The translations under genes were made by a program, and so were the position numbers. The notes under the pieces were generated by a model, which was not told where the DNA came from, ran no database searches, and saw only the letters and a list, made by a program, of their open reading frames with translations. Positions 5,031 to 32,148 of a stretch of 44,645 bases of DNA are shown here, piece after piece. Position 1 is the first letter of the stretch. The number at the start of each line of letters is the position of its first letter. Origin of the DNA: Akkermansia muciniphila (GTDB taxonomy: Bacteria > Verrucomicrobiota > Verrucomicrobiia > Limisphaerales > SXQI01); assembly GCA_945867235.1 (NCBI GenBank), contig CAMBHS010000004.1, positions 1-44,645 on the forward strand. The letters are read 5' to 3'.

Positions 5031-5225
5031 TCACTTGCGGTTGCGACCGAATCCCCAGATGAGCCACAAGGCAAGGGCGACTAGAAGGATCAACCACCAG
5101 AAATAACGGAGTTCGCGTGCCGCCATTTCGACGAAACCAAGGGTGCGTGGAAAAATGAGTGCGAGAAAACCTAAAACCCCCAATAGGACACCTGCCTGGA
5201 TCAGGGAGAGTTGGCGCGGGTTCAT
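5031..5225 (-). CDS. Small membrane protein coupled to the SPFH genes
   Basis: A 64-aa protein with two predicted membrane helices (about residues 7-28 and 38-57) and a basic C-terminal tail (GRNRK). I chose the ATG at 5225 because it overlaps the TGA stop of the preceding SPFH gene as ATGA, typical of translational coupling; a longer reading from 5324 would lie inside the SPFH coding region. Being the last gene of the SPFH operon, it probably partners or anchors those proteins in the membrane. No family recognised. Confidence 0.65.
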   Translation of the reverse strand: MNPRQLSLIQAGVLLGVLGFLALIFPRTLGFVEMAARELRYFWWLILLVALALWLIWGFGRNRK

Positions 5226-10437: not shown

Positions 10438-13400
10438 ATGCTTGATTGCTCGAAACGATGGTTTAGTTACCTAGCTGCGACTTTTTTGTTGATCCCCTGT
10501 TGGATGCAGGCTCAAGAACACGGGATACTGCGAGAGGTCTTCTCAGGGATCGGCGGTGGGGGCGTCGGGGATCTCACGAACAGCCCAGCGTTTCCCAGTA
10601 GCCCGACGACAACGAGCATCGTGGTGACGGGGTTTGAAGCTCCGACGAATGTGGAGGACAACTATGGTCAACGGATGCGGGGCTATATCACTCCGCCAGT
10701 CACTGGGAAATACACGTTTTGGATCGCGAGCGATGACGGCAGCAGTCTTTACCTGAGCACCGATTCGGACCCGGTGAATTGTCGATTGATTTCTTGGGTC
10801 AGCGGCTGGACCAGTTCGCGGGAATGGACACGGGAAGGCAACCAACAATCCGCACCCATCACCCTAACGGCGGGCGACAATTATTATATCGAGGCGTTGC
10901 AGAAAGAAGGCGGCGGCGGGGATAACTTAGCCGTGCGCTGGCTAAGGCCGGACGGGAAGGATGAGGGTCCGATTCCAAATGAATACCTTCTGCCTTTTGG
11001 CACATCGTTCACTCCACCCCTGATTGTGGAACAGCCCACCAACACCACCGTGGTGGAAGGTCAGAACGCGAGCTTCACTGTGAAGGTCAAGAACCTGGAT
11101 AGTTTGGCATACACGTGGAGCCGAGGTGGGGTTGTGATCCCGGGAGCAAAATCGCGTACTTACACGTTTGGACCCGTGACGTTGGATGACAACAACGCAA
11201 CCTTTAGTGTTTCGATGACGAACCGGTTGGGGGCAGCGAATTCGGTGACGGCAAAGTTGACGGTGACCCCCGATGTCACTGCGCCGGTGCTGTTATCTGG
11301 GGTGAACCTGGGTGCCAGCGGGTTGGAGCTTGTGTTCAGCGAATCGCTTTCTGCGGCGAGCCTAGCGAAACTGAGCAACTTCCAGATCAGCGGCGAGGTG
11401 GCGGTGATCGCGGCCACCTTTGGTGCGGACACAAAAACGGTGGTGCTCACAACCACCCCGATGGTTTTCGGGTCCAGCTACACCATCACGGTGGCGGGGT
11501 TGCAGGATCGTGCCCGGACGCCGAACACGATGTCCTCCCCGGGATCTTTGACCCTGTTGATTTTAGAATTTGTGTCGCAGACGATCGGTGCCCCTATCAC
11601 AGGCATGATTGAGCGAGTCGCTACAGGTGCCTACAACGTGTCGGGTGCGGGGAGCGATATCGGAGGTGGCACCGATCAGTTTCAGTTTGCGTGGGCAAAG
11701 CGCACGAATAATTTTGATCTTCAAGTCCGAGTGGATCGCGTCACGATGACCGACCCGTTTGTGCAAGCTGGGCTGATGGCCCGGGTCGGTCTCGAAGGCA
11801 ACGCGGCATTCGCGGGCATCTTCGGGGCGTCACCTCAAGTGGGATCATTCTTCGAGAGCAGGGCCTCTCTCGCAGGGACTGCCATCACCACGGCACCCGT
11901 GGGAGGATTTCCCGTTAATTATCCCCAGACATGGCTGCGTTTACGCCGAGTTGGGTCGGTGTTCACCGGATTCGGTAGCCTAGATGGCAAGACTTGGGTG
12001 CAACTTGGAACCGCAACCATCACCTCGCCCACCGTCATGTATGTAGGGCTGGCAGTGACTTCGGGCAAGCCACAGCAAGTCGCCATCGCTCAACTGCGCG
12101 ACTATGGGAGCACAGTATCCACGCTGGTCGGAACCTACACCCCTCGAGGTGAACCGATCGGGCCCAGTAATCGCCGGACTGGACTGATCTTTTCGGAGAT
12201 TATGTATCACCCGAAAAATCCGGTAGGAATCTTGAACCGGCTCGAATATATCGAGATTTACAACGCGGACTCGATATTTGAAGACCTCGGAGGGTCCACC
12301 CTCTCAGGAGGGATCAGCTACACGTTCCCACCCTTATTTCGATTGGAAGCCGGAGAGTGCGTCGTGATCGCCGCAGACCCCGCTGCGATTCGTTCCGTGT
12401 ACAGCATCACGAACGTGGTGGGGCCATTCACAGGGAGCCTCAATGCTTCGGGAGACACGCTTGTTTTTTCAGACACCCAAGGTGCCATCAAGCTCGAGAT
12501 GACCTACTCCCCACGCTCCCCGTGGCCCATCGCAGCCGATGGCACGGGCCATTCCCTGACCCTGAACCGGCCTAGCTACGGAGAAAACGATCCCCGGGCT
12601 TGGGGCTTGAGTGCCAGAGTCGGAGGCTCGCCTGGCGTCGCTGACGTGCTTTTGAACACGGCTCCGAACACCGTGATGATTAACGAATTTCTCGCTCATA
12701 CAGACGACCCCGTGTTCGACTTTATCGAGCTCTACAACCGTAGCACGACAGCGGTTGATCTCAGCGGTTGGTTTCTTACCGATACCACCCGATCCAACCT
12801 TTTCACCATCCCAGCAGGGACGGTTCTGAATGGACGTGCGTTTATTTCCTGGGATCAAAACCAATTGGGATTCAGCCTAAGCGCGGCAGGAGAGCGGATC
12901 TACCTGATCAGTGCGGATGGCTTGCAAGTATTGGATGCCATCGAATTTGGCGGTCAGGAAAATGGTGTCGCCTCCGGTCGGTCACCCGATGGGTCTGACA
13001 CCATTCGACGGCTCACCTCCCCTACCCCGAAGGTCGCCAACGCCGCGTGGAAAGTGGAAACCGTGGTCATCAACGAACTGATGTATGACCCCATCACTGG
13101 ACTGGAGGAGGATGAATACGTGGAGCTTTACAACCGAGGAACCACAGCGGTCAACCTCGCGGGGTGGAGGTTCAACGAAGGCATCGAGTTTGACTTCCCC
13201 GAGGGAACCCTTCTCGCGGGTGGAGGCTACCTCGTGGTAGCGAAGAACAAAACACAGCTCCTCAAGAACTACCCCCAACTGAATGACTCGAATACAGTCG
13301 GAGACTTTTCGGGCAAGCTAAACAATTCGACGGATCGCCTCGTCCTGACCAAGCCGGACGCCATCGTGAGCACGAATTCATTTGGAGAATTGGAAACAAA

Positions 13401-16400
13401 CACCATCCATATCGCTGTCGCCGACATGGTTTACTGGAGCGACGGTCGCTGGGGTCGCTACGCCGGCGGAGGTGGATCAAGCCTCGAACTGATCGACTCG
13501 CATTCTGACGGTCTGCGAGCCGCGAACTGGGCGGATTCGGATGAGACCAAAAAATCGACATGGTCCACGGTTACTGTCACCGGAGTGCTCGATCATGGCA
13601 TGGGTGGGTATAATCCGGACCGTCTGCACATCCTCCTGCAAGGGAACGCCGGGGAACTGCTTGTGGACGACGTGGAAGTCGTGACAGGAATCACCGATGT
13701 GATGAATAATGGTGGGTTTGAAACAGGAGCAGGCCAAGCCGCTACGAGCTGGGTTTTTAATGGCAACCATAGCCTATCAGGAGCTGATTCGACGGGTGCT
13801 GCCACAGGACTTCGCTGCCTGCACGTGCGAGGACAAGGGGATGGGGATCCAGGAATCAACAGCATCCGGGCGGTATTAAAAACGGGATTGAACGCGGGCG
13901 CAACCGCGACCATTCGAGCAAAAGTCCGGTGGCTATGCGGCACACGCGAGGTCCTGTTCAAACTGCGCGGGGGTTGGCTGGAACTGGCCGCACGAATTCC
14001 AATCCCATCGAACCTAGGCACCCCAGGTTTGGTCAACAGCCGAGCCGTAGCGAATACAGGTCCTGCCGTTTACGACGTGACCCATTCCCCAGCATTGCCG
14101 ATCGTCAACCAAGCCGTCGTCGTGACGTGCCGCGTGTCAGACCCAGACGGTCTGACCACCCTCAGTCTCCGTTACCGAATCGAGCCAGCCACCACCTTGA
14201 CCACCGTCACGATGCGCGATGACGGCAACAGTGGAGACGCCGTCGCGGGTGATGGAACCTATTCAGGCACGATCACCGGACGAGCCGCCGGAACCTCGAT
14301 CGCCTTCAAAATCGTAGCCACCGATGGCGCAGGAATCCAGATGAGCACCACCTTCCCGGGTGCCAATCTGATGCCGGTCGGACAACCCTCCTCCGAGGCT
14401 TATATTCGTTGGGGCGACACGATCCCTTGGGGCAACTTTGCGCACTACCACCTCTGGAACTCTCAAGGCAGCGAAGCCTTGAGAGCCAACGCTCTGAATA
14501 ACACCTACCGCGATGCCACCCTCGTTTACGGAACCTCGCGCGTTCTCTACAATGTCGGATTCCGAGACAAGGGCAGCCCTTATCATGGGGGTGGGGGTAG
14601 TTTTTCAGTGGTGAATGGAAAGGAAGAACCCCTCCTAGGCGTGACGGAACGTGTCTTCCGAAGCACAGGCAACGGGGGCGCGGAATCTACGGGTCTTCGC
14701 AACCAAATGAGCATGTGGATCGGCCGCCAGATGGGGATCCCTTACCTTCACTCTCACTACATGCAGTTGTTTCGCAACGGAGGACAGGTTTACAACATCT
14801 CGCAGGATGAAGAGTTTCCCAACGGCGACTTTGTGCAGAGTTGGTATCCCTCACCCGAAGAAGGCGATCTTTACAAAATAGCGATCTGGTTTGAGTTCAA
14901 CGATGATAACTCAGGGTTCGGAGGAGCCGGAGCGACCCTCCAAGAATTCAGGACTACGGGTAACGCCTTTAAACTCGCACGCTACCGGTTTAACTGGCAA
15001 ACGCGCGGCTACCAAGGAACCGTCAATAATTACTCCAACATTTTCAACTTGGTGAAAGCCGTCAATGACCAGACCCCAGCGTTCGCCGCGAACCTGCTCA
15101 ACCAAGCCGACATCAACGAATGGATGCATGTGTTCGCCTTCAACCGCCTTCTGGGAAACTGGGATGCGTGGACCCTGGGCGGCTCACAAAACATGTATGC
15201 CTACAAACTGCCCGGAAACACTTGGAAACTGGTTCCTTGGGACATCGATTTCACGTTGGGTGATGGGGGTGGCGTGAGTGACGCGATCATCCAGGGCGAC
15301 CGCCTTCATGATACCCCAATCTTTCGACGGATGATCTGGCGCGCCTACCAGAGGGCCTCCAAGTTCGCACTCGACCCCGCCCGTTACACCGAGGTAATCG
15401 ACGCTCGCCGGAGTAGCTTGGTGAAAAACAACATCGGCCTTACACCGCCCAATGTCGTTTCTGCATACATGGTAGGGCGCAAAGCGTTTATCGATGGGCA
15501 AGTTAAGGCCAACGACGTCGCTCAATTCAGCATCACCAGCAATGCCGGGGGCAACTACAACTCCACCACGTCCAGCACCACCATCACAGGTAAGGCACCC
15601 TTTGCAGTAGTAAATGTTGAGGTCAACGGCATCCCCTACCCTGCCACATGGACCGATCAGAACACCTTTTCCACGGTCGTCCCACTCACCGGATCCACCA
15701 ACATCCTCACGATCGCAGGCGTGGATGCCACCGGTGCGACCCTCGCGGGCACCGCAAAAACGATCACGGTCAAGTATTCAGGCGCCGTGCAACGCGTGCA
15801 GGATTACGTGATGATCAACGAGATCCAATACAACCCCGTCGCGACCCAAGGCTCGTTCCTCGAGTTATTCAACCGGTCCACTTCCACGGCCTTTGACCTC
15901 TCGGGTTGCCGATTGGATGGGGTCGGCTATACCTTTCCCGAGGGATCCCTGATCCAACCTGGAGGCTACCTAATCCTTGCAAAGAATGCAGCCGCGTTCG
16001 GCCTCGCCTACGGCACGACGATTTTTGTTCATGGTGAGTTTCCAGGATCACTAGATGCCGATGGAGAAAGTCTAAAACTCATCAAACCCAACGGAAATTT
16101 GGGTGGCACCACCGATCTTCTCATCAGCGATGTCCGTTTCAACGACAATCTCCCTTGGGCCACTAATGCCGCCGGATTCGGACCGTCGCTGCAGTTGATC
16201 GATCCCCTGAGAGGAAGTTACCGCGTGGCCAACTGGGCCGCGACCCCGACCAACTCCACCAGTCTCGTCACTCCCGGCCAGATCAATAGGGGAGTGAAAC
16301 AAACTTTGGCCGTTTTCCCAGAGGTCTGGATCAACGAGGTTCTGCCCAACAATGTGACAGGACCGCTTGATAACACGGGCCAGAAGGAGCCATTCATTGA

Positions 16401-19400
16401 ACTTTACAACGCAAGCATCGGCACGGTCGATCTCTCGGCTCTTTACCTGACCGATAGCTATACGAATTTAACTCGTTGGCAGTTCCCATCCGGAACTGTC
16501 ATTGGTGCGAAACAATTCCTCGTGGTCTGGGTCGATGGGCAACCGGAGCAAACCACCACCAATGCGCTGCACGCCTCCTTCAGACTCAACGCGACCAACG
16601 CGTCCGTTGCCCTGACGCGTCTCCAAGGGATCGCCAACACGCCAGCTGTTCTCGATTATTTGGATTACAATCAAGTCGCCCCGGGACGAAGTTTTGGCAG
16701 CTCGCCCGATGGCGAACCTCGGAACCGTCGCTCCTTCTTCAATGTCACTGCTGCGGCAACCAACAACGCAGCCTTTCCGGAGATCGCGCTCACGATCAAC
16801 GAATTCATGGCTGGAAACACCAACACGTTGATCAACCCATCCACAGGAAAATACGACGATTGGTTCGAGCTTCACAACGCTGGCACCAACGAGGTGGACC
16901 TAACCAGCTACACCTTGACCTCGATTCTGACCAATGCCAGCCAGTTCACAATCCCTACCGGATACGTGCTTCAGCCGGGTGGGTTCCTGCTGGTATGGGC
17001 CGATAAGAACACCAAGGCCAATTCCCCCACCAACACCGATCTGCACGTCAACTTCAAGCTCTCCAAATCCGGCTCGCAAATTGGCCTATTCGCACCCGAT
17101 GGTCAACTGGTCGATAGCGTGACATTTGGCGAACAAATCAGCAATATCAGCATGGGACGATATCCTGATGGTGATGAAGGCTCGTTCGTGGCTTTCGAGC
17201 TGGCGACTCCGCGAGTTGCTAATCTTTTGGTCGGAGGAAATCGTCCTCCCGCCCTCGCCCCGATCCCACCCCAAACGATAGACGAACAAAATCTGTTAAG
17301 GTTTGAAGTGACTGGAATCGATGCAGACCTTGATCAAACGCTCACATACAGTCTGGGGATTGATGCCCCTCCAGGCATGGAAATTGGAGCGAAGTCTGGA
17401 TTATGCACATGGACTCCGACCGAAGCTCAAGGACCAGGTTTTTACACGGTCACGATCCGAGTGAATGACAACGGCGTTCCGGGACGAGCGGTCAGCCAGC
17501 GCACTACGGTCACCGTTCGCGAAAGCAACCGGCCGCCCAGCATTAACCCCTCGGCAGACCAGACGATTGGTGAAGGAACGAGCCTCGCATTTTTGATAGA
17601 AGGAACCGATGCTGACCTTCCTGCGAACACTCTGAATTACGCTCTGGAACCAGGATTTCCTCTCGGTGTTACGATCAATGCGGCCTCAGGATTGGTGGAA
17701 TGGATCCCGACGGAAAACCAAGGCCCAGGGAATTACGAGCTAACCGTTCACGCATCCGATCAGGCAACACCACCCCTTTCGGTGAGTTCAAACATTAAAG
17801 TTCGGGTCAACGAAGTGAACACCGCGCCGACAATCGATCCGATTCCGACGCAAACCGTCACCGAAGGGAATACTTTGAATTTCATCGGACGGGCGACAGA
17901 TGCTGATCTTCCAGAACAATCGATTTTATTCTCCCTCGATCCTGGATTTCCGGCAGGTGCCAGCGTTCATCCTGTCACAGGAGCTTTTCTTTGGACTCCA
18001 AGAACGGAACAGGTTCCGAGCACCACCACGGTCACGCTTCGGGTGATTGACAATGGAACACCCCAACTTTCAAGCAGCCAGACATTTAGTTTGAGAGCGG
18101 TGAAACCGAATCGCGCACCGGTATTGGGAGATTTGTTAGATCAAACGATTGTTGAAGGAAGCCCATTCGTTTTGACGGTGTCAGCGACCGACCCCGACGA
18201 TCAACAAGGGCTGCGATTCAGTTTGGAGCCGAGTGCCCCAGTGGGTGCCACAATCGACGAAACTACAGGACAAATCTCATGGACACCCACAGAGGTTCAA
18301 GGTCCGTCCACGAATCGGATCACTGTTCGTGCAACCGATAATGGACTGCCGATCAAAAGCAATACCCAATCATTTACAGTGGTTGTCGCAGAGGTCAATC
18401 TATCACCTGTTCTCAACCTGATCACCAACCTGTCGGTTGTGGTTGGGCGCACATTGGCGCATCAGGCGGTTGCAGTGGATCCTGATTTACCATTGAACAA
18501 GCTTCAGTTTTCACTCGGGTTAGGATCACCTGCCGGATTAGCCATTGACGCAAATTCGGGCGTGCTCTCATGGACCCCCACCATGGCGCAAGCCCGGACA
18601 ACAAATAACATCACGGTTCGAGTAACCGATGATGGTGTGCCGGCGAAGATCGCGAGCAGACCCTTTCAAATCATCGTCCAACCATCGACATCGTGGCAGA
18701 AAGTGGTGGCGACTGGAACCTCCTCGAGTTCCAGTCTTTACATCTACCTTGACGCCAAAGGGGATGTTTATATAGATGATTTAAAAATCGTGGCAGGAAC
18801 AGATCCTGATGTGGGAGTAAACCAGTTGCAAAACGGAAACTTTGAGTCGGTGCTATCAGGTCCATGGAATCTTTCTCCCAATCTAACAGGTTCAGCCTTG
18901 GATAATACTCGGGCTTATTCGGGAACCAACAGCCTGCACATCGTGGCGTCGGCTGCGGGTACGACGCGAGCCTCCTCGATCTTTCAGGATATCCTCCCAA
19001 TACTCACTTCTGGAGCAACTTACACTTTGAGCTATTGGTTTTTGCCAAATACAAGCAGCGCAACCCTCACCATGAGACTGTCAGGCTCCGGCATCTCAAA
19101 CACGCAAAGTCTTTCTCCTCCCGCCAACAAATCGCCGGTAATGACCCCGGTTGCGGATCGCACCATCGCTGAACTTACTCCCTACTATTTTCTGAGTTCC
19201 GCTCAAGATGGAGATAACCCTCCGCAATCCCTCACATTTAGCTTAGATGCAGGCGCACCTGTGGGGTTAACGATTCAGCCATTGACAGGTTTGATTCAAT
19301 GGATTCCGACGGAGGCACAGGGATCCTCCACGAATACCGTGACGATTCGAGTTACTGATAGTGGGGTTCCCCCGTTGTCATCAACCACTTCATTCAAATT

Positions 19401-19944
19401 GATTGTGGCCGAGATCAACCAGGCACCGATTTTAAGTGGGATTTCTGATCAAACGATAGTTGCAGGAACTGTATCGAATACAAAAGCCGTTGGAACAGAC
19501 TCTGATTTCCCAACAAACCTTCTCTTATATTCGCTTGATCTGGGATCACCTTCCTACGCCACAATTGATCCCGTAACAGGAATCTTCATCCTGGCTCCCG
19601 GAGGCAATACACCGGTGGCGACAAATGAAATCACGATACGCGTTACCGACAACGGAATCCCTCCGCTGTCAGACAGAAAAACTATTCGAGTGGTCATCAC
19701 GGGCACAACGGAAAAACCTGTGCGCATCAGTGAGATTACGTTTGATCCATCCAGTCAAAAAGTGAAGTTCAGCTGGAATTCTATCGTTGGGAAAAAATAC
19801 AAAGTCACCGTGAATCCTACGGTCAATGATACCAGCGCTTGGGTGAATGTTGCCGAATTGATTGCAGTGGGTGGAACCTCGAGTTACGAAATAAACGTGA
19901 ATTCAGAGGTGCAACGATTCTACCGAATCGAGTTGGCACCCTAA
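10438..19944 (+). CDS. Giant exported protein with PA14, Ig-like, lamin-tail, CotH-like and repeated putative-Ig domains
   Basis: The 3168-aa protein begins with a signal peptide (about 1-25). Approximate order: PA14 (28-195), Ig-like (197-278), SbsA-like Ig (280-377), a DUF1349/concanavalin-like module (378-560), three lamin-tail domains (575-740, 741-868, 875-1035; e.g. 'MINEFLAH', 'VINELMYDP'), a carbohydrate-binding-like module (1041-1180), a CotH kinase-like domain (1320-1690) with 'GNWDAW' and 'WKLVPWDIDFTLG', three more lamin-tail domains (1788-2260), five putative-Ig/cadherin-like repeats (2268-2750; each with a 'TYSL/FSL...G' and 'WTPT-x-AQGP' core), a second binding-like module (2751-2894), two more repeats (2898-3088) and a beta-rich C-terminal domain. 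No LPXTG or PEP-CTERM anchor is seen. It is probably a secreted or surface glycan- or matrix-binding protein; CotH kinases phosphorylate proteins, but the substrate here is unknown. Its stop lies 1 bp from the convergent ribF stop. Confidence 0.85.
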   Translation: MLDCSKRWFSYLAATFLLIPCWMQAQEHGILREVFSGIGGGGVGDLTNSPAFPSSPTTTSIVVTGFEAPTNVEDNYGQRMRGYITPPVTGKYTFWIASDDGSSLYLSTDSDPVNCRLISWVSGWTSSREWTREGNQQSAPITLTAGDNYYIEALQKEGGGGDNLAVRWLRPDGKDEGPIPNEYLLPFGTSFTPPLIVEQPTNTTVVEGQNASFTVKVKNLDSLAYTWSRGGVVIPGAKSRTYTFGPVTLDDNNATFSVSMTNRLGAANSVTAKLTVTPDVTAPVLLSGVNLGASGLELVFSESLSAASLAKLSNFQISGEVAVIAATFGADTKTVVLTTTPMVFGSSYTITVAGLQDRARTPNTMSSPGSLTLLILEFVSQTIGAPITGMIERVATGAYNVSGAGSDIGGGTDQFQFAWAKRTNNFDLQVRVDRVTMTDPFVQAGLMARVGLEGNAAFAGIFGASPQVGSFFESRASLAGTAITTAPVGGFPVNYPQTWLRLRRVGSVFTGFGSLDGKTWVQLGTATITSPTVMYVGLAVTSGKPQQVAIAQLRDYGSTVSTLVGTYTPRGEPIGPSNRRTGLIFSEIMYHPKNPVGILNRLEYIEIYNADSIFEDLGGSTLSGGISYTFPPLFRLEAGECVVIAADPAAIRSVYSITNVVGPFTGSLNASGDTLVFSDTQGAIKLEMTYSPRSPWPIAADGTGHSLTLNRPSYGENDPRAWGLSARVGGSPGVADVLLNTAPNTVMINEFLAHTDDPVFDFIELYNRSTTAVDLSGWFLTDTTRSNLFTIPAGTVLNGRAFISWDQNQLGFSLSAAGERIYLISADGLQVLDAIEFGGQENGVASGRSPDGSDTIRRLTSPTPKVANAAWKVETVVINELMYDPITGLEEDEYVELYNRGTTAVNLAGWRFNEGIEFDFPEGTLLAGGGYLVVAKNKTQLLKNYPQLNDSNTVGDFSGKLNNSTDRLVLTKPDAIVSTNSFGELETNTIHIAVADMVYWSDGRWGRYAGGGGSSLELIDSHSDGLRAANWADSDETKKSTWSTVTVTGVLDHGMGGYNPDRLHILLQGNAGELLVDDVEVVTGITDVMNNGGFETGAGQAATSWVFNGNHSLSGADSTGAATGLRCLHVRGQGDGDPGINSIRAVLKTGLNAGATATIRAKVRWLCGTREVLFKLRGGWLELAARIPIPSNLGTPGLVNSRAVANTGPAVYDVTHSPALPIVNQAVVVTCRVSDPDGLTTLSLRYRIEPATTLTTVTMRDDGNSGDAVAGDGTYSGTITGRAAGTSIAFKIVATDGAGIQMSTTFPGANLMPVGQPSSEAYIRWGDTIPWGNFAHYHLWNSQGSEALRANALNNTYRDATLVYGTSRVLYNVGFRDKGSPYHGGGGSFSVVNGKEEPLLGVTERVFRSTGNGGAESTGLRNQMSMWIGRQMGIPYLHSHYMQLFRNGGQVYNISQDEEFPNGDFVQSWYPSPEEGDLYKIAIWFEFNDDNSGFGGAGATLQEFRTTGNAFKLARYRFNWQTRGYQGTVNNYSNIFNLVKAVNDQTPAFAANLLNQADINEWMHVFAFNRLLGNWDAWTLGGSQNMYAYKLPGNTWKLVPWDIDFTLGDGGGVSDAIIQGDRLHDTPIFRRMIWRAYQRASKFALDPARYTEVIDARRSSLVKNNIGLTPPNVVSAYMVGRKAFIDGQVKANDVAQFSITSNAGGNYNSTTSSTTITGKAPFAVVNVEVNGIPYPATWTDQNTFSTVVPLTGSTNILTIAGVDATGATLAGTAKTITVKYSGAVQRVQDYVMINEIQYNPVATQGSFLELFNRSTSTAFDLSGCRLDGVGYTFPEGSLIQPGGYLILAKNAAAFGLAYGTTIFVHGEFPGSLDADGESLKLIKPNGNLGGTTDLLISDVRFNDNLPWATNAAGFGPSLQLIDPLRGSYRVANWAATPTNSTSLVTPGQINRGVKQTLAVFPEVWINEVLPNNVTGPLDNTGQKEPFIELYNASIGTVDLSALYLTDSYTNLTRWQFPSGTVIGAKQFLVVWVDGQPEQTTTNALHASFRLNATNASVALTRLQGIANTPAVLDYLDYNQVAPGRSFGSSPDGEPRNRRSFFNVTAAATNNAAFPEIALTINEFMAGNTNTLINPSTGKYDDWFELHNAGTNEVDLTSYTLTSILTNASQFTIPTGYVLQPGGFLLVWADKNTKANSPTNTDLHVNFKLSKSGSQIGLFAPDGQLVDSVTFGEQISNISMGRYPDGDEGSFVAFELATPRVANLLVGGNRPPALAPIPPQTIDEQNLLRFEVTGIDADLDQTLTYSLGIDAPPGMEIGAKSGLCTWTPTEAQGPGFYTVTIRVNDNGVPGRAVSQRTTVTVRESNRPPSINPSADQTIGEGTSLAFLIEGTDADLPANTLNYALEPGFPLGVTINAASGLVEWIPTENQGPGNYELTVHASDQATPPLSVSSNIKVRVNEVNTAPTIDPIPTQTVTEGNTLNFIGRATDADLPEQSILFSLDPGFPAGASVHPVTGAFLWTPRTEQVPSTTTVTLRVIDNGTPQLSSSQTFSLRAVKPNRAPVLGDLLDQTIVEGSPFVLTVSATDPDDQQGLRFSLEPSAPVGATIDETTGQISWTPTEVQGPSTNRITVRATDNGLPIKSNTQSFTVVVAEVNLSPVLNLITNLSVVVGRTLAHQAVAVDPDLPLNKLQFSLGLGSPAGLAIDANSGVLSWTPTMAQARTTNNITVRVTDDGVPAKIASRPFQIIVQPSTSWQKVVATGTSSSSSLYIYLDAKGDVYIDDLKIVAGTDPDVGVNQLQNGNFESVLSGPWNLSPNLTGSALDNTRAYSGTNSLHIVASAAGTTRASSIFQDILPILTSGATYTLSYWFLPNTSSATLTMRLSGSGISNTQSLSPPANKSPVMTPVADRTIAELTPYYFLSSAQDGDNPPQSLTFSLDAGAPVGLTIQPLTGLIQWIPTEAQGSSTNTVTIRVTDSGVPPLSSTTSFKLIVAEINQAPILSGISDQTIVAGTVSNTKAVGTDSDFPTNLLLYSLDLGSPSYATIDPVTGIFILAPGGNTPVATNEITIRVTDNGIPPLSDRKTIRVVITGTTEKPVRISEITFDPSSQKVKFSWNSIVGKKYKVTVNPTVNDTSAWVNVAELIAVGGTSSYEINVNSEVQRFYRIELAP

Positions 19945-27038: not shown

Positions 27039-27322
27039 AACTTTCGCACTGGCAACCCAGCAATAAAATCTTTCGCAATCATGACATTACAGAGGAATCG
27101 CAACACCGTCAAGCAGGCAGAAACAACTTTGCGCCCCATCATTCTCTTGTCTAACGGAAAACCCATGATGCAAAACCTCCTAACAGAGTTCAGGTTACTC
27201 TTTGGTTTCATGCTTTATGGAAATGTTTTTGTCACAACTAAACACCTTCGAACTGCGACACTGATGAACCTGACCCAGCGAAACTTGGCTTGCCAGATGA
27301 ACCCCTTTGTGAAAAGTTTCAC

Positions 27323-28423
27323 ATGCAATTTATGGGACACATCAAACTGCATATACCTGGGCCGGTTGAAGTAAGTGAAAAAACCTTTCGAGCGTTTTGT
27401 GCGCCTATGATTGGGCATCGAGGTCAGGGGTTCAAAGACTTATATGCCACAATGCAGCCACAGCTCCAATCTCTGCTCTACACGAAACAGTTGGTTTATT
27501 TGAGCACCTCTTCTGCTTGGGGAATCATGGAAGGAGCCTTGCGCAACCTCGTCGCCAAGAAAGTCCTCTGTTGCATGTGTGGTGCTTTTTCCGATAAGTG
27601 GCTGGACGTCGCAAAACGGTGCGGAAAAGACGCTGAAGGTTTGCGCGTGGACTGGGGTTCGCCGATCAGAGCTGAGGCCATTGACGCCAAGCTTTCCACC
27701 GGCGAATTCGATGCGATCACGCTCATTCATAACGAAACATCTACGGGCACGATGAGTCCGCTCGCTGAAATTGCGGCTTTGAAGGTAAAATACCCAGACG
27801 TGATGTTCATCGTCGATGCAGTGAGTTCGATGACTGGGACGAAGATTGAATTCGACACCCTGGGAATTGACGTTTTGCTGGCTGGAACTCAAAAAGCGTT
27901 CGCCTTACCCCCTGGTTTAACGGTCTTTACGTGTTCTCCGGCCGCACTTGCCAGAGCCTCTCAGCAAAAAGATCGAGGGTATTATTTTGATTTCATCGAA
28001 TTCCAAAAAAATGCGGCCGACAGTATGACTCCGAGCACCCCCAGCATTAGCCATTTTTATGCGCTTGCCTCAAAGTTGGAGGATATTTTTGCTGAAGGCC
28101 TTGATGCACGATTTGAACGACACTTGACTCTCGCAAATAAAACGCGCAATTGGGCAACGGGTCATGGGTTTTTACTGTTTCCAGAAACGGGATATGAATC
28201 TGAGACCTTAACTTGTGTGAGCAACGGAGCTCGACATGGAGGAAGGGTGATCGATGTGGCTAAGTTTCAAAAGCTCGTCAAAGACCGAGGATTCCTTATT
28301 GACGGTGGGTATGGCAAAATTAAAGGAACAACATTCCGTATTTCGAACATGGGAGACGAAACGGAAAGCTCCATACAGACCTTATTTTCAGCCATGGATG
28401 ACGCATTGAGTCATCTTGGGTAG
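27323..28423 (+). CDS. Class V aminotransferase (alanine--glyoxylate / serine--glyoxylate type)
   Basis: This PLP-dependent fold-type I enzyme (366 aa from the ATG at 27323) begins 'HIPGPVEVSEKTFRA', typical of the alanine-glyoxylate/serine-pyruvate family. It also shows 'FIVDAVSSMTG' (PLP-binding Asp) and 'LAGTQKAFALPPGL' with the Schiff-base Lys, near residues 165 and 190. The C-terminal 'GTTFRISNMGD' carries the carboxylate-binding Arg. It would transfer an amino group between a small amino acid (alanine, serine) and glyoxylate or pyruvate in the cytoplasm; the exact substrate cannot be read from sequence, and a SerC-like or PucG-like role is possible. The frame is open back to a TTG at 27290, but homologues start near the ATG at 27323 or 27332. 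Confidence 0.85.
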   Translation: MQFMGHIKLHIPGPVEVSEKTFRAFCAPMIGHRGQGFKDLYATMQPQLQSLLYTKQLVYLSTSSAWGIMEGALRNLVAKKVLCCMCGAFSDKWLDVAKRCGKDAEGLRVDWGSPIRAEAIDAKLSTGEFDAITLIHNETSTGTMSPLAEIAALKVKYPDVMFIVDAVSSMTGTKIEFDTLGIDVLLAGTQKAFALPPGLTVFTCSPAALARASQQKDRGYYFDFIEFQKNAADSMTPSTPSISHFYALASKLEDIFAEGLDARFERHLTLANKTRNWATGHGFLLFPETGYESETLTCVSNGARHGGRVIDVAKFQKLVKDRGFLIDGGYGKIKGTTFRISNMGDETESSIQTLFSAMDDALSHLG

Positions 28424-28454: not shown

Positions 28455-29555
28455 TCACAGCTTGGCGGCACTATTGTTGGAGGCCGGTTGATGTTGGAGA
28501 ATGGCTTTAAATTTAGTGCCGAGAAGTTCTGGTCGAGTTAATGTAGCCAAAGCTCTGGTTTGGTTGGCAGCAAGCTCAAAACCAGCCTCCAACCACCGCT
28601 GCACTATTTCCATGAGAAAAATCTGCTGGCGATCGTAAAACTCGGTTATCAATCCAACATCCTCGCCAATGGATAGAATCGAGGTAAAATTCACTGAGGC
28701 AGTGAGATCCACTTCTCCGGAATCTGCCTCCAAGACGTTCGCCGCCTGATGCTTTCGATAGCCTCGCAAGGAGCCTTGAGACCGGTCAGCCATCCAAAAG
28801 TCTTCTTCACTTCCACCGTAATCAAAAGTCAGCAACCAACCTTCCGCCAATCTTGAGGAAGCCTGATGCCACCAAGAAACTGCCGCAGGGCATAACTCCC
28901 GCTGGTAGCCATGAGGCAATACCGCACCTAATGAAGAGGTGAATAATTCCAAGGATTTTGGATAAGGTTCGGCGGAGAGTGTTGAAACCCAAACTAATCG
29001 CCCTCCTTGGTAGGTCACGCCAAACTCATGCCACCGATGTTGGGTCGCGTCCCAACGCCATATTTCCACTGGGAAAGCATCGAGCAACTCGTTGGACAAA
29101 ACAACGCCGGTCACCGAAGCGGGTGGGATTTCCTGCCAGTCGCTCATCCAACGCACTTTAGAACCGTGGGCGTCGAGCATTTCACCCTGCCACTGGCGTC
29201 TTGTGAGTGAAGGTTCCAGAATAACATACTTAACACGTCGATAAATGTTGGGGCGATTTTTTTGAAGCCAATTCAAAATATCCAATGCCATCTGACCTTC
29301 GTTGGCACCAGCTTCTATCACTTGAACCTCGTTGGGGATCGACTTGAGTTTTTCGGAAATCCAAAAAGCGAGTAGCTCACCAAAGAGCGATCCGACACTG
29401 ACGCTTGTGAAATAGTCCCCCTTCCGTCCAACTCGACCTTTGATCTCATAATAACCATGCTGAGGATGGTAAAGCGCGAGGTCCATGAAACGCGCCCAAG
29501 GCATCACCCCCAAGCGGGTAATCTCATCGCGCACAATTTCAGCCAAAGAGTTCAT
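28455..29555 (-). CDS. MidA/NDUFAF7-family SAM-dependent methyltransferase
   Basis: The 366-aa protein matches the MidA family (PF02636), whose mitochondrial member NDUFAF7 dimethylates an Arg of a complex I subunit. Motifs: N-terminal 'MPWARFMDLALYHPQHGYY' (about 18-36) and 'GDYFTSVSVGSLFGELLAFW' (about 46-65); SAM-binding 'VIEAGANEGQMALDIL' (about 79-94); 'VVLSNELLDAFPVEIW' (about 150-165); 'LLTFDYGGSEEDFW' (about 240-253). The family's usual G-x-G at the SAM site is here 'EAGANEG'. It is alone, convergent with the aminotransferase, and lies upstream of a divergent gene at 29801. The protein substrate in bacteria is not established. Confidence 0.85.
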   Translation of the reverse strand: MNSLAEIVRDEITRLGVMPWARFMDLALYHPQHGYYEIKGRVGRKGDYFTSVSVGSLFGELLAFWISEKLKSIPNEVQVIEAGANEGQMALDILNWLQKNRPNIYRRVKYVILEPSLTRRQWQGEMLDAHGSKVRWMSDWQEIPPASVTGVVLSNELLDAFPVEIWRWDATQHRWHEFGVTYQGGRLVWVSTLSAEPYPKSLELFTSSLGAVLPHGYQRELCPAAVSWWHQASSRLAEGWLLTFDYGGSEEDFWMADRSQGSLRGYRKHQAANVLEADSGEVDLTASVNFTSILSIGEDVGLITEFYDRQQIFLMEIVQRWLEAGFELAANQTRALATLTRPELLGTKFKAILQHQPASNNSAAKL

Positions 29556-29800: not shown

Positions 29801-32095
29801 ATGCGCTGTTTACTGACATCGCCCCGTGCCAACCGCTCTCTGTGGTCTTCATGCTTATTGGCCTCCTCCCTCTTGGTTGGGTTGACCATCACCACTCAAT
29901 CTCAGAATAAAAAGTCCTCCGTCTTACAGGAGGATTTTCCGTTCCAAGGGGCTGCCATTTCCGCCAAAGGCCCTGGAAAAAATGTAGCCATGAAAGGCTT
30001 GGCAATCCGCGTCGCCAATGGGGCATCTGTCCTGTTTGACACAGAATTACTGCGCATGGTGGCGGGTTGATCCGGCGGGTATATCACTTCTTTCGGTGTT
30101 GCGTTTGATGGGGGTCATGGCGGACATCCTGCCATTGATGGCGAACAAGCTTTTGCCACCCCTACCCTTCCGGGTTGGATCGGTGCGAAGGATGAATTTA
30201 AGGATCCGCGTCCGGAACCGTTCGGAGCATTGGCTCCCGAATATGCACGCTGGGACGGGTTGCATGTCGTTGGAATGGATACGGTGCTTTCCTACACGAT
30301 CCGAGGCACTAAAATTTATGAGCAACCCTCGAGCATCCTGAAAGACGGACAACTCGGCTTTGTGCGGACATTCGATCTCGCCAAAGCAAAGGAGGATTTA
30401 AGTTTGCTGGTTTGTGAAGTTGACGGTGGACAGGGTCAGGTCGAAGGCAACCGGGCTGTCATTAAATCGGGGGAAAAAAGCACGGTTGTGGTGGGTTCAT
30501 CACTTCCGGGAAAGGCACAATTAATCGTCTCCAACAATCGAGTTTTACTCCAATTGCCAAAAGGAGCTGGGGGCGTTTTCAAACTGACAATATGGAACGG
30601 GATTGAGGCGAATATTCCAAAGGTGGCCTCACTCGCCGAAGGTGCTCCCAAGTTGGTTGACTTCAAAAAAGGAAGTCCTACGCGATGGACTCAGGAGGTT
30701 GTCACCAAAGGTCAATTGCAAACGAGCCAAACACCAGATGGAGCGTATGTGACCGACAGCCTAACAGCTCCCCTTGAAAACCCATGGAAACGCCGGGTTC
30801 GTTTCAGCGGTTTGGACTTTTTTAAGGATGGCAAACGAGCCGCACTTTCCACGTGGGATGGGGATGTTTGGATCGTTTCAGGAATTGACGACACGTTGGA
30901 GAATCTGCGATGGAAACGGTTTTCCTCGGGGATGTATGAAACAATCGGGCTGAAGATTGTCGATGAAGTCATTTACACCTCAGGCCGGGATCAGCTCACT
31001 CGTTATCACGATCTAAACAAAGACGGGGAGGCGGATTACTACGAGAACTTCAATAACCAATATACTTCCACAGAAGGGTTCCACGAATTCTTATTCGACC
31101 TTCAAACCGATAAAGAAGGAAATTTCTACTTCGCCAAGGCAGGCCCGGTGCGTGGCGGCGGGCGCGGGTTCGAGCGGATTTCCGCGAATGCCGGAACGCT
31201 GATGAAGGTATCGAAAGACGGTAAAAAGCTTGAGGTCGTGGCGACTGGATTTCGTGCACCCAACGGCATTGGTGTCAATCCTTGGACAGGACAATTGACT
31301 ACCGGCGACAATGAAGGCAGTTGGATGCCAACCTGCCCGATTAACTGGGTCAAGCCAGGTGGTTTTTATGGAGTCGAAGACACCGCACAAAAAAGCCCTG
31401 TTCCCACCTTTAACCCACCCATGCTCTGGTTGTCCCACAATGGTTGGGATAACTCAGGAGGCGGTCAGGTGTGGGTGGACAGCGACAAGTGGGGTCCATT
31501 CAAAGGTGAATTGTTGCACTGTTCCTATGGAGAATGCGCCCTTTACCTCGTCATGAAGCAAGACCTAGGCAATCAGATGCAAGGCGGAGCGGTGCGTTTG
31601 CCCGTCAGGTTCACTTCGTCGGCAATGCGTCCAAAGTTCAATCCTACCGATGGTCAATTATATGTGGCTGGGCTTCAAGGCTGGCAAACAAAGGCCGTAA
31701 AAATGGCCGGCTTGGATCGCGTCCGATACACCGGACAACCCGTGGCCAGTGTGCGCAATATCAAGGTGGACAAACTCGGTGTGCACCTCACATTCACGCA
31801 ACCCGTTGAAGCAAAATCCGCTGAGGACAACCAGAATTACGCTGTGGAAATGTGGAATTACCGCCGCTCCTCAAATTACGGATCTCCGGAAGTTTCAGTA
31901 AAAAACCCGGAGAAAAATGGACACGACAAATTAGAAGTAAGCGTTGCCAAAATATCGGCTGATGGACTGACGATCACATTGACCATTCCGGAACTTGTTC
32001 CTGCGATGCAAGTGCAACTCAAATACAACCTGAAATCAAAATCAGGTAAGGAAATCAATCAAACAGTCCTAAGCACGGTGCATGCGATTCCCTGA
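29801..32095 (+). pseudogene. DUF6797-type exported protein with sorbosone-dehydrogenase-like propeller, interrupted by one in-frame TGA
   Basis: The frame runs from the ATG at 29801 to the TGA at 32095 (764 codons) with a single internal TGA at 30068-30070. Residues 1-35 are a signal peptide. The following part matches the DUF6797 family of verrucomicrobia and planctomycetes: 'DFPFQGAAISAKGPGKNVAMKGLAIRV', 'VLFDTELLRMVAG', then TGA, then 'SGGYITSFGVAFDGGHGGHP' and 'GPL/GAL-x-PEYARW'. From about residue 340 a beta-propeller like glucose/sorbosone dehydrogenases follows ('RAALSTWDGDVWIVSG', 'GFRAPNGIGVNPWTG', 'LTTGDNEGSWMP'). No CXXCH haem motif is present. Both halves stay in one frame and look undecayed, so the TGA is a recent nonsense change, a sequencing error, or is read through. 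The downstream part could restart at 30230, but without its signal peptide. Confidence 0.75.
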
Positions 32096-32120
32096 TCGAT
32101 AACCCGGCTTCAAACTTATA

Positions 32121-32148
32121 AAGCGGCTCCACTGGAGCCGCTTTTTTT
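32121..32148 (+). terminator. Strong rho-independent terminator
   Basis: A perfect 10-bp stem (AAGCGGCTCC / GGAGCCGCTT) with a 3-nt loop is followed by a run of seven T residues, 26 bp after the stop of the DUF6797-type gene. It separates that gene from the lipoprotein gene at 32197. Confidence 0.9.

What the first reader, a model, noticed from the sequence alone, without database searches (positions are those of the whole stretch)
30068..30070. A lone in-frame TGA at a conserved Trp position in a DUF6797-type gene
Seen: the frame from 29801 to 32095 is open on both sides of one TGA; codons before read ...LLRMVAG and after SGGYITS..., and both halves keep family motifs with no other lesion. 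Family knowledge: related proteins carry Trp between AG and SGG at this point, so a single G-to-A change (TGG to TGA) explains it. Other genes here use TGA as a true stop (e.g. at 5222 and 37972), so general recoding to Trp is unlikely. Inference: recent nonsense mutation, assembly error, or gene-specific readthrough.
Basis: partly seen in the sequence, partly recalled or inferred. Interest (0 to 1): 0.7.

Follow-up and report, generated by a model that had tools for sequence, protein, structure and literature searches.

The report
Lone nonsense codon, otherwise intact gene
One otherwise healthy gene in this uncultured verrucomicrobial draft genome carries a single premature stop (TGA) exactly where every relative has tryptophan (TGG), which is best read as a very recent one-base mutation or a base-call error, not a new way of reading the genetic code.

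Summary
Frame 29801-32095 is open except for TGA at 30068-30070 (codon 90). All 76 homologous loci aligned by tblastn have TGG there (plus three same-genome paralogue matches, also Trp). In 124 genomes of the same order, this is the only one of 144 matches to the N-terminal part with an internal stop. The other 18 Trp codons of the gene are TGG. Selection has not relaxed: N:S counts on its own branch are 55:136, against 55:142 on its sister's (neutral about 2.7:1), with no indels. The lesion, if real, is therefore young.

Recoding is not supported. TGA ends 186 of 468 long ORFs. RF2 is intact, with the classic CTT-TGA-C autoregulatory frameshift. All 39 tRNAs were read: the only tRNA-Trp is CCA, none has a UCA anticodon. 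No SelB passes the cut-off. In 845 kb (31% of the genome) this is the only convincing internal stop.

The protein is predicted to be an exported DUF6797 domain plus a soluble-glucose-dehydrogenase-like beta-propeller; Trp90 lies in a DUF6797 strand. Best reading: a recent nonsense mutation or strain polymorphism. A consensus base error cannot be excluded without reads. Basal UGA leakiness could give a trace of full-length protein.

The parts
29801..32095 (+). DUF6797 / beta-propeller gene, 764 codons, with one internal stop
   Evidence: (PF20601, E 2e-23)
30068..30070 (+). in-frame TGA (codon 90) in place of conserved TGG (Trp)
29801..29905 (+). presumed N-terminal export signal, residues 1-35 (by eye; low model confidence for residues 1-37)
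   Evidence: translation; pLDDT below 50 for residues 1-37; inference
30029..30322 (+). DUF6797 domain (PF20601), residues 77-174, interrupted at residue 90
30698..31759 (+). approximate beta-propeller part, fold like soluble glucose dehydrogenase (boundaries rough)
   Evidence: (weak TIGR02604 match to residues 377-530)
32120..32144 (+). terminator-like hairpin plus T-run after the gene
   Evidence: consensus scan only

Best explanation
A recent single-base G-to-A nonsense mutation (TGG to TGA, Trp90), perhaps only a strain-level polymorphism, in an otherwise intact gene for an exported DUF6797/beta-propeller protein. Ribosomes should end at codon 90 and release an 89-residue peptide lacking most of the DUF6797 domain and the whole propeller. 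Normal low-level misreading of UGA by tRNA-Trp(CCA) could still make a trace of full-length protein. Shown: the lesion, the conserved Trp, purifying selection on this lineage, and a standard UGA-stop apparatus. Inferred: that the base is real and that the gene is now off or strongly reduced.
For: Single transition from the codon found in all 76 other-genome homologous loci. No other stop and no indel against the nearest orthologue. Own-branch N:S 55:136 matches the sister's 55:142, with neutral expectation 2.69; at most about 7% of the branch neutral. The only convincing internal stop in 845 kb and the only stop among 144 matches in the order sample. RF2 intact with its UGA-dependent frameshift site. 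tRNA-Trp only CCA. A published survey of bacterial in-frame stops concludes they tend to persist only briefly, on the scale of population polymorphism (PMC7918605).
Against: No reads were seen, so a base-call or consensus error gives the same picture. Preserved selection is also what functional readthrough would give.
Confidence: 0.6

Rival explanations
1. Consensus or assembly base error: the population carries TGG and the draft (199 contigs) has a wrong A.
For: Draft genome assembly in 199 contigs. The lesion is one isolated base in a gene with no other damage, and the same gene is cut by contig ends in two sister genomes, hinting that the locus is hard to assemble.
Against: No other convincing internal stops in 845 kb, so the assembly is not error-rich in this respect. 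Nothing in the local sequence marks an artefact.
Confidence: 0.28
2. Gene-specific functional readthrough: UGA at codon 90 is read as Trp by tRNA-Trp(CCA) often enough to keep the gene useful, possibly as a regulated low-expression state.
For: Purifying selection over the whole frame; UGA is a leaky stop and is misread as Trp in enteric bacteria (PMC7918605); tRNA-Trp has a weak G27-U43 top pair in its anticodon stem.
Against: No relative shares the TGA. No notable RNA structure at the site (z -1.1). tRNA-Trp counts as a 5-bp-stem type with A9 and G24 unchanged, and the identical tRNA occurs in sister genome G002. The other 18 Trp codons are TGG.
Confidence: 0.1
3. Genome-wide reassignment of UGA to Trp, or UGA as selenocysteine.
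For: Reassignment of UGA to Trp is known in a verrucomicrobial endosymbiont lineage (PMC13092985, names Ca. Pinguicoccus supinus).
Against: TGA ends 186 of 468 long ORFs. prfB present with canonical motifs and autoregulatory TGA. No tRNA with UCA anticodon among 39. SelB below cut-off, and the one tRNA-Sec model hit over cut-off is tRNA-Ser(UGA).
Confidence: 0.01

Closest known systems
Premature in-frame stop codons in bacterial genes under purifying selection (Belinky et al. 2021, PMC7918605)
   Same: Single in-frame stop in an orthologous gene, flanking sequence still under purifying selection, apparently young.
   Different: That study concentrated on stops shared by two or more species; this one is private to one genome, so error cannot be excluded.
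UGA-to-Trp reassignment (e.g. Mycoplasmatales, Ca. Zinderia, Ca. Pinguicoccus; PMC13092985)
   Same: TGA at a position where relatives have Trp.
   Different: One codon only, TGA abundant as a terminal stop, RF2 kept, no tRNA-Trp(UCA) and no 4-bp-stem tRNA-Trp(CCA).
DUF6797 (PF20601) proteins of Verrucomicrobiota
   Same: Domain above Pfam cut-off, conserved full length and upstream neighbours (aminotransferase, Methyltransf_28) in G003.
   Different: Only this copy, among 144 matches in the order sample, has an internal stop.

Membership tests
Nonsense-mutated gene (young pseudogene or nonsense allele) | In-frame stop replacing a sense codon conserved in orthologues | tested here: met
   TGA against TGG in 76/76
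Nonsense-mutated gene (young pseudogene or nonsense allele) | Base is real in the organism | not testable with these tools
   No reads or second assembly of this species were available
Old pseudogene | Relaxed selection or further lesions | tested here: not met
   N:S equal to sister branch, no other lesion
UGA-to-Trp recoded genome | Many in-frame TGA at conserved Trp codons | tested here: not met
   One convincing case in 845 kb
UGA-to-Trp recoded genome | tRNA-Trp(UCA), or 4-bp-stem tRNA-Trp(CCA) | tested here: not met
   39 tRNAs, only Trp(CCA); stem 27-31/39-43 has five pairs counting G27-U43
UGA-to-Trp recoded genome | Loss or alteration of RF2 | tested here: not met
   prfB 463 bits, SPF and GGQ present, CTTTGAC frameshift site
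Selenoprotein | SelB and selenocysteine tRNA in the genome | tested here: not met
Programmed stop readthrough | Stop conserved across related species | tested here: not met
Programmed stop readthrough | Measured full-length product | not testable with these tools
   needs proteomics or a reporter
DUF6797 (PF20601) | Profile match above gathering score | tested here: met
   83.3 bits against cut-off 24.9, reading TGA as Trp

The most novel reading that the evidence does not exclude
A gene-specific, functional UGA readthrough as Trp in a standard-code verrucomicrobium, used to keep an exported DUF6797/beta-propeller protein at low level.
Probability: 0.07. Interest if true: 0.5.

Novelty: new member of a known kind. 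Interest (0 to 1): 0.15.

Why it matters
Mostly as a caution: gene callers will split or truncate this gene, hiding an intact-looking protein (the longest ATG/GTG/TTG ORF listed in this frame is only 30230-32095). It also shows that one TGA at a conserved Trp is not evidence of recoding when RF2, the tRNA set and the rest of the genome are ordinary. If the allele were found to be kept in populations, it would be a small natural test of how long nonsense alleles survive on UGA leakiness.

Tried and rejected
Genome-wide recoding to Trp and selenocysteine: contradicted. Altered tRNA-Trp (A9C, G24A or 4-bp anticodon stem): not found; the gene is identical to that of G002. Stimulatory RNA element after the TGA: fold z-score -1.1, no Rfam hit in the window. 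Old pseudogene: no relaxation of selection. Other internal stops in the genome sample: the other 19 candidates were judged by eye to be neighbouring genes in the same frame (start codon soon after the stop) or shadow frames. The first branch analysis used some loci in the wrong orientation and was replaced. No paper in the library mentions DUF6797.

Full report
What is there. The frame 29801-32095 (+) codes for 764 residues with one internal stop, TGA at 30068-30070 (codon 90), and ends in a further TGA. The window is contig 4, whole, of a 2.72 Mb, 199-contig draft genome (96% complete); homologues come almost wholly from Verrucomicrobiota metagenome assemblies.

Is the site a conserved Trp? 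Yes. Of the homologous loci whose alignment spans the site, all 76 from other genomes have TGG; the own-genome paralogue matches also have Trp. The column is invariant in the 37-sequence alignment. The more distant same-genus copy in G001 has TGG as well. In 293 genomes of the same order, 144 matches in 124 genomes were found with residues 44-176 as query, and only the window's contains a stop (144 is my sum of the per-genome match counts). So this is one G-to-A transition in one lineage.

Is the gene long dead? No. Against G003 (83% aa, 764 codons, no gaps) with more distant outgroups, parsimony assigns 136 synonymous and 55 nonsynonymous changes to the window's branch and 142 and 55 to G003's; downstream of the TGA the figures are 124:51 and 131:45. 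The neutral N:S expectation for this gene is 2.69. A simple likelihood puts the share of the branch evolved without constraint at about 0.5%, upper 95% bound 7% (9% for the part after the TGA). Synonymous sites are saturated (own-G003 figures) and 171 differences were ambiguous, so the bound is rough; the equality of the two branches is the solid part. All other 18 Trp codons in the gene are TGG.

Does the organism read UGA as a stop? Everything tested says yes. TGA ends 186 of 468 long ORFs in the sample. prfB (RF2) scores over its cut-off, has SPF and GGQ motifs, and starts with a short frame ending CTT TGA C preceded by GGAGG, the classic autoregulatory frameshift whose logic needs UGA to be a stop (the mechanism is my own knowledge). 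The genome shows 39 tRNAs, one tRNA-Trp with CCA, and none with UCA. The tRNA-Sec model's one hit over its cut-off (48.9 against 47 bits) is a tRNA-Ser(UGA), and SelB is below cut-off. The tRNA-Trp has A9 and G24, five anticodon-stem pairs counting G27-U43, and is identical over 76 bases to that of sister genome G002, so neither the suppressor changes nor the 4-bp stem described in PMC13092985 applies.

Is it alone? In 845 kb (31% of the genome, 40 stretches plus the window) a codon-usage scan for stops with open, coding-like sequence on both sides gave 20 candidates; by reading them, the window site is the only one where coding runs straight through, the rest being adjacent genes in one frame or shadow frames. 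This judgement was by eye and the scan would miss stops within 60 codons of a gene end.

What the protein is. PF20601 (DUF6797) matches residues 77-174. The structure model from the TGA=Trp reading has mean pLDDT 90 and pTM 0.89, with Trp90 in strand 85-91. Foldseek's best matches are soluble PQQ-type glucose dehydrogenases such as 2ism (TM 0.71 by target length, 14% identity), and a weak TIGR02604 match to residues 377-530 is the only NCBIfam hit. Sequence search of solved structures finds only 2ism at E 0.33. An exported sugar-dehydrogenase-like or carbohydrate-related role is inference. Two other DUF6797 genes in the genome, at C12 and C176, have no internal stop, so the function may be partly backed up. 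The upstream neighbours (class-V aminotransferase 27290-28423, Methyltransf_28 28455-29555, nusA, infB) are conserved in order in G003, so this is the true orthologue and not a stray copy.

Verdict. A recent nonsense allele is most likely (0.6), a consensus error next (0.28), useful readthrough possible but without positive support (0.1). Published work finds in-frame stops in bacterial genes to be widespread and short-lived (PMC7918605).

Noticed in passing
L177:1486-1510 (G000:C86, prfB): RF2 gene keeps the classic autoregulatory +1 frameshift site (GGAGG TTT CTT TGA C) after a short leader frame beginning MFDPIKAQ.
   Followed up: partly
G001:C17 end / G001:C44 start, G002:C60 end (L169, L167, L166): In two sister-species assemblies contigs break inside the orthologous gene at nearly the same place (residues 253-266), so the N-terminal half is on another contig (G001) or not found (G002).
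   Followed up: partly
window 10438-19944 (+): A 3168-residue giant protein with PA14, CotH kinase, six Lamin Tail and six putative Ig (He_PIG) matches, cadherin and carbohydrate-binding domains.
   Followed up: no
G000:C57:15532-15711 (L125, L127): tRNA-Trp(CCA) and tRNA-Ser(UGA) lie about 20 bases apart downstream of tRNA-Thr and a SelB-like GTPase hit (probably EF-Tu); the tRNA-Ser just passes the tRNA-Sec model's cut-off (48.9 against 47 bits), a false positive to beware of.
   Followed up: yes
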